From Deltaproteobacteria bacterium RIFCSPHIGHO2_02_FULL_40_28 (GTDB taxonomy: Bacteria > UBA10199 > 2-12-FULL-40-28): a stretch of 64,000 nucleotides of DNA. The notes below the pieces were generated by a model. That model searched no databases. It worked only from the letters and a program-made list of their open reading frames with translations, and was not told the origin of the DNA. Positions within the stretch are counted from its first letter, which is position 1; each line of letters begins with the position of its first letter. Of this stretch, positions 11,919 to 17,230 are shown piece after piece. A program made the position numbers and the translations under genes. Location: positions 76,176 through 140,175 of the forward strand of contig MGRJ01000027.1 in assembly GCA_001798135.1 (NCBI GenBank), in the 5' to 3' direction.

Positions 11919-11920
11919 AG

Positions 11921-11973
11921 TAATTAAAAATCTCTCCCAATCACTGTTTTACGGCCAGAGGCTCTGGCTTTAT
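11921..11973. repeat. Left copy of 53-bp direct repeat flanking fic
   Basis: This stretch matches 13136-13188 at 51 of 53 positions. It corresponds to the last codons and stop of the histone-fold gene at 13139-13594. The two differences fall within adjacent codons: Met to Ile, and a silent Gly change. The copy lies between the YhiN gene and fic. Confidence 0.93.
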
Positions 11974-12040: not shown

Positions 12041-13102
12041 ATGAAGACGCTCGAACAATTGCTATCTGACTTTGAAAATGTGCCGACAACAATATCCTGG
12101 TATCTTGCTGATCTTGGTGAGGCAAAAGGCAAGCAGGATCTTTTTACCAAGCAATCTCCTCAAAAATTAAAAACCTTACGTGAGCATGCTTTGATCGAAA
12201 GTGCTGTGTCCTCAAACCGTATTGAAGGCGTTGAAGTTAACCAAGCCCGTATTGGTACCGTGGTATTTGGAAAAGCTTTCCTGCGTGATCGCAATGAGGA
12301 GGAAGTGCGTGGTTATCGCAAAACCTTAGATTGGATTCATCAAAAGGGAGTCAAATTGCCTGTGTCTGAAAAAACCGTTCTCCAATTTCATAAGCTAACA
12401 CGCGGGGAAATATGGGATGCAGGAAAATACAAGGAAAAGGATGGGGACATCATCGAAAAATACCCAGATGGTCGTGAACGAGTTCGTTTTAAAACGGTCA
12501 AGGCTTCTAATACATCTCGTTATATGAAAGCATTAATTCTGAAATGGAATGATTGCATCAAACAACGGGAAGTCCATCCTTTGATTGTTTTAGCAGCTTT
12601 CAGCCTGGATTTTCTCTGCATTCACCCCTTTCGTGATGGTAACGGCAGGGTATCTAGGCTCTTGTTGCTATTACAGTGTTACCATTTGGGCTATGAAGTA
12701 GGTCACTTTATCAGTTTGGAACGGATTATCGAAGAAAACAAAAATCGTTATTACGAAACCTTGGAACAATCTTCCCGGCATTGGCACGAGGGGAAACATG
12801 ATCCCTGGCCCTACATTGGCTATGTTTTGTACATTCTCAAAACTGCTTATCGAGAATTTGAAGAACGGATGGGAGATCTTAAAAACCCTCGTGGTGAAAA
12901 AACTGCTTTGGTTGTTCGAGCCATTCGACAATCTTCCGAAACGTTTCGTATTGCTGATATTCAACGTAAATGCCCTAGCATTAGCGTGGATATGATTCGG
13001 AAGGTACTTAAAGACTTAAGGGCCGAAGGCCGAACGAAATGTCTCGGACGGGGAAAAACTGCCCAGTGGAAACGTGTAGGGAAATGGCGGAATTTGAATT
13101 AG
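12041..13102 (+). CDS. Fic family protein (AMP-transferase type, with N-terminal inhibitory motif)
   Basis: A 353-aa Fic-domain protein that probably transfers AMP or another nucleotide monophosphate onto a target protein. The active-site motif HPFRDGNGRVSR is complete at about residue 195. SNRIEG near residues 58-63 fits the inhibitory motif (S/T)xxxE(G/N), so this is a self-inhibited class II Fic protein needing no separate antitoxin. The C-terminal ~80 residues look like a winged-helix domain (FRIADIQRKCPSISVDMIRK), common in this subfamily. The gene sits between near-identical 53-bp repeats, suggesting arrival as a unit. The target is unknown. Confidence 0.93.
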   Translation: MKTLEQLLSDFENVPTTISWYLADLGEAKGKQDLFTKQSPQKLKTLREHALIESAVSSNRIEGVEVNQARIGTVVFGKAFLRDRNEEEVRGYRKTLDWIHQKGVKLPVSEKTVLQFHKLTRGEIWDAGKYKEKDGDIIEKYPDGRERVRFKTVKASNTSRYMKALILKWNDCIKQREVHPLIVLAAFSLDFLCIHPFRDGNGRVSRLLLLLQCYHLGYEVGHFISLERIIEENKNRYYETLEQSSRHWHEGKHDPWPYIGYVLYILKTAYREFEERMGDLKNPRGEKTALVVRAIRQSSETFRIADIQRKCPSISVDMIRKVLKDLRAEGRTKCLGRGKTAQWKRVGKWRNLN

Positions 13103-13135
13103 GTAATACAAGATTCAAATAGGTAATAATATGGG

Positions 13136-13188
13136 TAATTAAAAATCTCTTCCCATCACTGTTTTACGGCCAGAGGCTCTGGCTTTAT
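13136..13188. repeat. Right copy of 53-bp direct repeat flanking fic
   Basis: This copy is the genuine 3' end of the histone-fold gene, covering codons for KARASGRKTVMGRDF, the TAA stop and three following bases. It lies 1215 bp from the left copy, and the fic gene fills almost all of the space between. Confidence 0.93.
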
Positions 13189-13594
13189 CGATGGCCTTAA
13201 GGCATTCTTTCACCACAATTTCGGTTAGGGCATCTACGGCGCATTGACTGGTGTTATAACCCGAGCGGTCTTGGATGATTTTTTTAACTTTAGAAACCAC
13301 TACCAAAGTATCTACTTCAGGAAGGGAAAAGGTGGTTGATTGGTTGGATCGAATTACGATTTTTTTTGCAGCGGGAATACTTGCTCCTGCATGGGAGGGC
13401 GCTGTTTTTTCAATGGCGGAGGATTCTCGATGATTGGCAAAGCCTAAGTGCGCATCCCAACAGGCTACGCAGCAAAAAGCCAAACCTGTTTTTTTGGTAT
13501 TGCAGGTGGATACTGAACAAGTTTGGTACTTCCCCCCAAACACAATGGGCTTTTTACAGCTGGCACATTTTTTCCAAAATAATTCTTCGGACAT
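13139..13594 (-). CDS. Bacterial histone-fold protein with N-terminal zinc finger
   Basis: A 151-aa fusion. Residues 10-55 hold a Cys/His cluster: C10-x2-C13, C26, C31, C41-C42, C45, H49 and H55, consistent with two zinc sites. After a flexible linker (about 56-85), the last ~60 residues look like a single histone fold: VVVSKVKKIIQDRSGYNTS, an Ala/Leu-rich central helix, then ARASGRKTVMGRDF. That ending is the same type as the archaeal histone AGRKT motif and Bdellovibrio Bd0055. Zinc-finger ('ZZ') histones have been described in bacteria by structure-based surveys. DNA binding and a chromatin role are inferred. The 3' end is duplicated beyond fic. Confidence 0.82.
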   Translation of the reverse strand: MSEELFWKKCASCKKPIVFGGKYQTCSVSTCNTKKTGLAFCCVACWDAHLGFANHRESSAIEKTAPSHAGASIPAAKKIVIRSNQSTTFSLPEVDTLVVVSKVKKIIQDRSGYNTSQCAVDALTEIVVKECLKAIDKARASGRKTVMGRDF

Positions 13595-15699: not shown

Positions 15700-16638
15700 A
15701 TGGGAAGAAAGTATTGTCTCAGATGTAACCAAGTCATTGCGGCAGGTCAGGCGCATTATGGGCAGCATATTTACTGCTTTAAAGAAATATTTTTAGTTTC
15801 TGAGGTTTTAGAATTTCATTCCTTAGCTAGGAAGGAATCAAGCAGTAACAAAGAACAGAAAAGCTTGTTGCCGCATCTTACTTCTTATTTTGCCGGTAAC
15901 TATAAAAAGTATGAAGGGAAGTTAGGAGACTTAAGCTACATTTTAAAATTTTCAAAGTCTGAGTATCCAGAATTGGCACCGGTGGAATATGTTTGCAATA
16001 AAATTGCTTACTATTGTGGCATCCCTACCCCAAAACCTTTTACTCTTATCGAGATGGCGGATGATGAACTGGCGTTCGTTTCAAAAAACTTCATGCACAC
16101 CATGAAAACTCATTCTACCTTAGTGCATATCTATCGATATTTGGAAGGGGGCGCAGAAAATTACAATGTTGAAACAATAAGTAACACTATTTTCCGAGAA
16201 ACCAAGGCGTCTCAGGATGTGACAAATTTTTTTAAAGTTCTTTTGTTTGATTCGTTAATAGGAAACCACGATAGGCATGGAAGTAATTTGGCACTTTTTG
16301 AAACAGCAAAAGAAAAACAATTAGCTCCTATTTATGACAACCCCTCATATCTTGGATTAGAATCAGGCGGGATGCTCAAGGCGGATTTTTCGCCAAAAGG
16401 CAAAATATGGACGAAAGATTCCAAAGAACCAGGGATGACAGAATATTTAGAGGAAATAAGCCGGTTGGGTGTGTTTGAAATGGCGGAGGATTTTTTTAAT
16501 AAACTTCCAATTGAAAGGATTCGATCAACAATTAGTGAAGCTGTTTGCCTTTCAGATCCGATGAAAAATGTTCTGCTTAAACTTATTGATAAGAGATACC
16601 TGGAACTTAAAAAATATGTCGAAAATAGAAGAAATTAA
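15700..16638 (+). CDS. HipA/HipT-type serine/threonine kinase toxin
   Basis: A 312-aa kinase matching the C-terminal (catalytic) part of HipA but lacking its N-terminal subdomain. ATP-site elements include LSYILKF (Lys). The catalytic loop is LLFDSLIGNHDRHGSNLAL and the metal-binding segment LAPIYDNPSYLG. A short N-terminal Cys motif CLRCNQVI plus a later Cys could bind zinc. HipT kinases phosphorylate aminoacyl-tRNA synthetases and stop growth. The missing HipA N-subdomain sits in the next gene, as in the three-part HipBST systems. No clear ribosome site is visible; operators reach almost to the start. Confidence 0.85.
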   Translation: MGRKYCLRCNQVIAAGQAHYGQHIYCFKEIFLVSEVLEFHSLARKESSSNKEQKSLLPHLTSYFAGNYKKYEGKLGDLSYILKFSKSEYPELAPVEYVCNKIAYYCGIPTPKPFTLIEMADDELAFVSKNFMHTMKTHSTLVHIYRYLEGGAENYNVETISNTIFRETKASQDVTNFFKVLLFDSLIGNHDRHGSNLALFETAKEKQLAPIYDNPSYLGLESGGMLKADFSPKGKIWTKDSKEPGMTEYLEEISRLGVFEMAEDFFNKLPIERIRSTISEAVCLSDPMKNVLLKLIDKRYLELKKYVENRRN

Positions 16639-17230
16639 TATCTATAGCCAAACAAAAACAAAGCGCATCTTTGTCGGAAAGCTATGGAGAGAAGGTAAAA
16701 AATATTTCTTTGAGTATGCCAATACTTATAAGAAATTAAGAAGTGCCTTGTCTCTTGGCCCTGAGCTTCCTTTGTGGAAAGGTAGGGCTTCTTCAAGCGC
16801 CTTATTCCCAGCTTTTTCAGACCGCATCCCATCCAAAAAAAATCCTGCCTACAAGGATTATTGTCGCGAATGGGGGATTGGCGAAAATGAGAAGGATGTT
16901 TTTGTTTTGCTAACAACTATCGGGCGCAGAGGTCCTTCGACCTTTGTTTTTGAGCCAGCTATTAAAAACGAATATACAGCTTCACAACTGAAAGATTTTA
17001 GAAATCGATTAGGACTTACTCAATCTGAATTTGAAGTGTTCTTTAATATATCTCATATGACTTTGTTTCGTTTGGAAGCGGGTAAGTCCAAGAGTGACTT
17101 CTATTTGCGGTATTTTGAACTATTCGACAAAGTGCCTCAGGCTTTAGCTTGGATGTTGGAAAAAAGAGGGCAATTACTGCATGATGAAAAAAGAATTCGT
17201 CTGCTAAGCCAAAAGAAGCTGATATGTTAG
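16616..17230 (+). CDS. HipS-like HipA N-domain fused to XRE helix-turn-helix (antitoxin/regulator)
   Basis: A 204-aa protein. Residues about 1-110 resemble the HipA N-terminal 'couple_hipA' subdomain: the segment RIFVGKLWREGKKYFFEYA, then SLGPELPLW and the RIPSKKNPAYKDYC block. Residues about 130-190 form an XRE HTH: LKDFRNRLGLTQSEFEVFFN and ISHMTLFRLEAGKSK. It thus combines the roles of HipS (kinase-inhibiting subdomain) and HipB (DNA-binding antitoxin), with the HTH at the C-terminus. The ATG at 16616 lies within the kinase gene (23-nt overlap), so the two are translationally coupled. It probably binds the three operators upstream. Confidence 0.78.
   Translation: MSKIEEINIYSQTKTKRIFVGKLWREGKKYFFEYANTYKKLRSALSLGPELPLWKGRASSSALFPAFSDRIPSKKNPAYKDYCREWGIGENEKDVFVLLTTIGRRGPSTFVFEPAIKNEYTASQLKDFRNRLGLTQSEFEVFFNISHMTLFRLEAGKSKSDFYLRYFELFDKVPQALAWMLEKRGQLLHDEKRIRLLSQKKLIC

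What the first reader, a model, noticed from the sequence alone, without database searches (positions are those of the whole stretch)
13139..13594. Zinc-finger histone: Cys/His cluster fused to a Bd0055-like histone fold
The last 60 residues match the archaeal/Bdellovibrio histone pattern, ending in SGRKTVMGRDF. A nine-ligand Cys/His N-terminal region precedes it. Prokaryotic zinc-finger histones have been proposed from structure surveys, but almost nothing is known of their function.
Basis: partly seen in the sequence, partly recalled or inferred. Interest (0 to 1): 0.8.

Follow-up and report, generated by a model that had tools for sequence, protein, structure and literature searches.

The report
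Bacterial histone with zinc-binding domain
This gene makes a small bacterial protein that joins a predicted two-zinc domain to a DNA-binding histone domain; it is a clear new member of the already catalogued "ZZ histone" class, whose function in cells nobody has tested.

Summary
Window 13139-13594 (minus strand) is a real 151-residue gene. Residues 95-151 are a histone fold: profile E ~1e-20 to the Bdellovibrio histone HBb/Bd0055, and a confident AlphaFold model with Z 8.7 and rmsd 0.6-0.9 A to HBb. Eight of the ten HBb residues reported to contact DNA are identical. Residues 7-56 carry a Cys/His cluster with eight strictly invariant ligands and fixed spacing, C-x2-C-x12-C-x4-C-x9-C-x3-C-x3-H-x5-H, in all 16 family members collected from three phylum-level groups.

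This is the "ZZ histone" category of Schwab et al. 2024, so it is a new member of a known kind. New details: the zinc module occurred only in histone genes, once per genome, in 385 genomes searched. There is no conserved gene neighbourhood. It is the only histone match in two near-complete relatives, which argues against reading another histone's tail. The window's genome instead carries three alpha3 histones. Histones lacking the zinc module nest among ZZ histones, suggesting module loss.

Best mechanism: a low-abundance dimeric DNA bender, with the zinc module as a protein-docking domain (inferred). In passing: a Fic gene sits between two 54-bp copies of the histone gene's 3' end.

The parts
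13139..13594 (-). ZZ-type histone gene, 151 aa plus stop
   Evidence: ORF; 14 intact full-length homologues plus one split across contigs
13427..13576 (-). N-terminal zinc module, residues 7-56: C10 C13 C41 C45 (C4 site) and C26 C31 H49 H55 (C2H2 site), cross-braced by analogy with Schwab et al. 2024
   Evidence: All eight ligands invariant with fixed spacing in 16 sequences; pLDDT above 90 over most of it; site pairing from PMC11390915. Zinc binding itself inferred
13313..13426 (-). Flexible linker, residues 57-94, containing a short basic-hydrophobic motif KKIVIR (residues 77-82)
   Evidence: pLDDT under 50 at residues 82-89; linker length 36-106 aa across the family; motif [KR].?[IV][IV] in 10 of 16 linkers against 1.2 expected in shuffles, 0 of 2000 shuffles as high, chosen post hoc and related sequences
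13142..13312 (-). C-terminal alpha3-truncated histone fold, residues 95-151 (helices 100-111, 117-140 and one short turn 148-150); R143-D150 clamp, K144-T145
   Evidence: DNA-contact residues mapped from PMC11317129

Best explanation
The gene encodes a ZZ histone. Shown: an alpha3-type bacterial histone fold almost superimposable in prediction on HBb, joined by a variable flexible linker to a module with eight invariant Cys/His. Inferred, in decreasing certainty: (1) the histone part dimerises and binds the DNA backbone without strong sequence preference, bending it as HBb does; (2) the Cys/His module binds two structural zinc ions; (3) the module is a docking surface for a protein partner (or holds the dimer at particular sites), so the protein is a low-abundance accessory chromatin factor and not the bulk genome packager; (4) in this organism bulk packaging is left to the separate HBb-like and FtF-like histones.
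For: Histone. DNA binding: of the ten HBb residues with most DNA contacts (T8 S9 K10 K12 K16 N22 S24 K52 T53 R57; PMC11317129), eight are identical here by the gapless alignment (S101 K102 K104 N114 S116 K144 T145 R149), and S101, K104, N114, S116, T145 and R149 are invariant in the 15 aligned ZZ histones. The RD clamp R143/D150 is kept. Zinc: eight ligands invariant with no indels between them. Docking: invariant non-ligand residues K14, I17, Y23, S27, V28, S29, F40, W46 and R56 suggest a selected surface; the module occurs only in histone genes, once per genome, among 385 genomes. Accessory role: the B. bacteriovorus ZZ histone is poorly expressed (PMC11390915), and Bd3044 (that genome's second histone, by inference the same gene) cannot readily replace Bd0055 (PMC10627809); this genome also has an HBb-like and an FtF-like histone.
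Against: No zinc, DNA-binding or expression measurement exists for this protein. Two DNA-contact positions differ (T8 to V100, K16 to Q108). In two near-complete relatives (G005, G028) the ZZ histone is the only histone match, which fits poorly with a purely accessory role there. No partner is suggested by gene neighbourhood.
Confidence: 0.55

Rival explanations
1. The zinc module is a second DNA-contacting element. Together with the histone dimer and the basic linker motif it clamps DNA or gives sequence preference, making the protein a bacterial NF-Y-like transcription factor and not a docking protein.
For: The whole protein is basic (pI 9.3, charge about +10) and the zinc module itself is basic (pI 8.8). 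The linker or C-terminal tail carries conserved basic patches, and three relatives lacking the linker motif have VIRRR or VVIRRKPRP tails. Plant zf-FLZ and animal zf-FCS are the commonest sub-threshold Pfam hits of the module.
Against: Those Pfam hits are far below cut-off. The invariant residues of the module include few basic ones (K14, R56). No regulator-like neighbourhood is conserved.
Confidence: 0.25
2. The ZZ module reads the tail of another histone, as eukaryotic ZZ domains read H3.
For: Structural likeness of the class to HERC2, p300 and ZZZ3 ZZ domains reported in PMC11390915; this genome has two other histones.
Against: G005 and G028 (94-95% complete) have no other histone match. 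Schwab et al. report that the pocket residues are not conserved and that half of the proteomes have no second histone.
Confidence: 0.08
3. The protein is the main chromatin packager of its cell, with the zinc module stabilising or multimerising the histone dimers.
For: It is the sole histone match in G005 and G028.
Against: In the window's genome two other histones exist. The ZZ histone of B. bacteriovorus is of low abundance (PMC11390915). The module is lost in some relatives.
Confidence: 0.12

Closest known systems
ZZ histones (alpha3 histone category, Schwab et al. 2024 Nat Commun, PMC11390915; e.g. D0LYE7 of Haliangium ochraceum, and one in B. bacteriovorus HD100)
   Same: N-terminal Cys/His module with the same ligand numbering (C10, C13, C26, C31, C41, H49, H55) followed by a bacterial-dimer-like alpha3 histone
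   Different: The fourth C4 ligand is C45 here and in all 16 sequences; the paper prints C43/C53, where this family has V43 (or another non-Cys residue), probably a misprint for C45/C55. D0LYE7 itself was not compared here
HBb / Bd0055 of Bdellovibrio bacteriovorus (bacterial dimer histone; 8FVX, 8CMP, 9EZZ, 9F0E)
   Same: Histone fold, RD clamp, KT motif, 8 of 10 DNA-contact residues, single-turn alpha3
   Different: HBb lacks the zinc module and linker; about 47% identical over the fold; V100 and Q108 replace T8 and K16
FtF histone HLp of Leptospira perolatii (9QT0, 9QT1)
   Same: alpha3 histone fold (Z about 8)
   Different: Sequence match to the window protein is much weaker than HBb's (E 0.0012)
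Eukaryotic ZZ domain (PF00569) and FCS/MYM- or FLZ-type zinc fingers
   Same: Eight Cys/His in a likely cross-brace; FC[S] followed by C-x3-H in a helix
   Different: No PF00569 hit in any of 16 members at E up to 10; FCS/FLZ hits weak and below cut-off; C-x3-C in place of the C-x2-C of ZZ, from general knowledge

Membership tests
[quoted passage not shown]
   HBb best match; alpha3 only residues 148-150
ZZ histone (Schwab 2024) | N-terminal module with a C4 and a C2H2 set of ligands at profile positions 10, 13, 26, 31, 41, 49, 55 and one more Cys | tested here: met
   eight invariant ligands at the same numbers; last C4 ligand C45 (paper prints C43)
ZZ histone (Schwab 2024) | N-terminal module has the ZZ-type zinc finger fold | tested here: inconclusive
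ZZ histone (Schwab 2024) | Binds two zinc ions | not testable with these tools
   needs purified protein
Bacterial dimer histones (HBb) | Short stand-alone histone without extra domain | tested here: not met
   94 residues precede the fold
Face-to-face (FtF) histones | Conserved R48 and N52 at the dimer-dimer interface | tested here: inconclusive
   Not aligned position by position; the protein is closer to HBb than to HLp. The genome's C6 histone carries an R and an N at about these places
Archaeal nucleosomal histones (HMfB) | Full-length alpha3 and long alpha2 | tested here: not met
   alpha3 of three residues in the model; HMfB Z 5.7, against 8.7 for HBb

The most novel reading that the evidence does not exclude
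A zinc-dependent, recruitable bacterial chromatin factor: the zinc module docks the histone dimer to a specific partner or site, giving bacteria a histone with a built-in targeting domain that some lineages have secondarily discarded.
Probability: 0.3. Interest if true: 0.7.

Novelty: new member of a known kind. Interest (0 to 1): 0.38.

Why it matters
ZZ histones are named in one survey and have had no functional study in the papers searched. This member adds a family alignment with strict ligand and surface conservation. It adds genomes in which the ZZ histone is the only histone match and a genome where it coexists with two other types, and relatives that appear to have lost the zinc module. 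Together these make the question "what does the zinc module add to a bacterial histone" testable by comparing natural ZZ and ZZ-less versions.

Tried and rejected
Chance ORF: rejected, 14 intact full-length homologues. Phage or plasmid origin: no match in phage, plasmid or viral collections. Function from operon context: no neighbour shared among the compared loci apart from the histone gene itself. Zinc-module identity by sequence: no PDB hit up to E 10 and only sub-threshold Pfam hits. First AlphaFold run with 5 sequences was poor (pLDDT 57.6); repeated with 45 sequences. Structure search of the whole model listed no ZZ protein among the rows shown, because histone folds fill the list. Two separate origins of the ZZ-histone fusion: the histone-fold tree rejects one ZZ clade when ZZ-less histones are included (AU p 0.0013) but not when these, L016 and the long L003 branch are left out (p 0.38), so module loss is the simpler reading; only 58 columns.

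Full report
Observation. The minus-strand ORF 13139-13594 encodes MSEELFWKKC...GRKTVMGRDF, 151 aa. The single sequence hits the HBb/Bd0055 structures 8CMP and 8FVX over residues 95-150 at E about 1e-11; a 15-member family profile hits them at 1e-20, the Leptospira histone at 6e-9 and an Asgard archaeal histone at about 1e-3. Pfam CBFD_NFYB_HMF and NCBIfam archaeal histone match the same stretch below cut-off, so routine annotation would probably miss it.

Family. Searches gave 14 intact full-length relatives and one split over two contigs, in three phylum-level groups. The loci with public titles are called Deltaproteobacteria bacterium. In the window's own phylum-level group 7 of the 46 genomes held carry the zinc module. 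Ligand positions C10, C13, C26, C31, C41, C45, H49 and H55 are invariant with no indel between them in 16 sequences. Schwab et al. give C43 as the fourth C4 ligand; position 43 here is V and the invariant Cys is 45, so their figure legend probably carries a misprint.

Structure. With 45 aligned sequences AlphaFold gives mean pLDDT 87.6, over 90 for most of the zinc module and the histone fold, and below 50 at residues 82-89 of the linker. pTM is 0.48, so the placement of the two domains relative to each other is undefined. Helices 100-111 and 117-140 and a three-residue alpha3 match HBb at Z 8.7, rmsd 0.6-0.9 A, 47% identity; HMfB scores Z 5.7.

DNA binding. Hu et al. list T8, S9, K10, K12, K16, N22, S24, K52, T53 and R57 as the main DNA contacts of HBb (PMC11317129). 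By the gapless alignment these fall on V100, S101, K102, K104, Q108, N114, S116, K144, T145 and R149: eight of ten identical. The R51-D58 clamp is R143-D150. DNA binding by the histone part is therefore likely, but inferred.

What the zinc module goes with. In 385 genomes the module profile found eight places, one per genome. Seven lie in histone genes (one of them split over two contigs), and the eighth (G013) lies directly upstream of a decayed histone remnant. It has no conserved neighbours. In G005 and G028 the ZZ histone is the only histone match; G003 has an FtF-like histone too; the window's genome has an HBb-like (C1:8519) and an FtF-like histone (C6:64786). This argues against a general role in reading another histone's tail.

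Loss of the module. L012, L073, L074 and L075 are histones of ZZ-histone type without a zinc module. In a histone-fold tree they fall inside the clade of the window protein (95/85), and a single ZZ clade is rejected only while they, L016 and the long-branched L003 are included (p 0.0013 against 0.38). This suggests loss of the module at least once; the tree has only 58 columns.

Linker. A basic-hydrophobic motif ([KR].?[IV][IV]) is in 10 of 16 linkers against 1.2 expected; three relatives without it in the linker have a similar VIRR(R/K) motif at the C-terminal end. The pattern was chosen after seeing the sequences and they are related, so this is a lead only.

Mechanism. Most likely the protein is a dimeric DNA-bending histone with a two-zinc docking module, of low abundance (by analogy with B. 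bacteriovorus). The histone part is supported by sequence and model. Zinc binding is inferred from ligand conservation. Docking is inferred from invariant non-ligand residues and from the module's exclusive pairing with histones.

Novelty. The class is published (PMC11390915), and Bd3044, the second B. bacteriovorus histone (PMC10627809), is by inference a member. No functional study was found in the library. This is a new member of a known kind.

Noticed in passing
window 11920-11973 and 13135-13188, flanking 12041-13102: A Fic-domain gene lies between two direct copies (54 bp, 96% identical) of the 3' end of the histone gene; the outer copy begins right after the stop of an HI0933-like flavoprotein gene. 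It looks like an insertion at the histone 3' end that duplicated the site; the repeat holds a perfect 7-bp inverted repeat. Not found elsewhere in the genome, and the genome's other Fic genes lack long flanking repeats of this kind.
   Followed up: partly
window 15700-17227: HipA split in two overlapping genes in unusual order: a HipA_C kinase gene with an N-terminal CxxC stretch, then a gene with the HipA N-terminal (Couple_hipA) domain and an apparent helix-turn-helix; resembles a rearranged HipBST toxin-antitoxin set.
   Followed up: no
L034:1-260 (G013): A ZZ histone at a contig edge keeps its zinc module but has lost the histone core; a stop precedes the remnant IDHAKADGRKTVMGRDIKT. Real decay or an assembly fault.
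   Followed up: partly
G000:C1:8519-8710 (L002) and G000:C6:64786-64974 (L003): The same 2.16-Mb genome has two more alpha3 histones, one HBb-like and one FtF-like, so three types coexist.
   Followed up: yes
L072 (G099): A ZZ histone with an unusually long linker (106 aa against 36-65 in the others) that carries a second basic patch FIRRRS.
   Followed up: no
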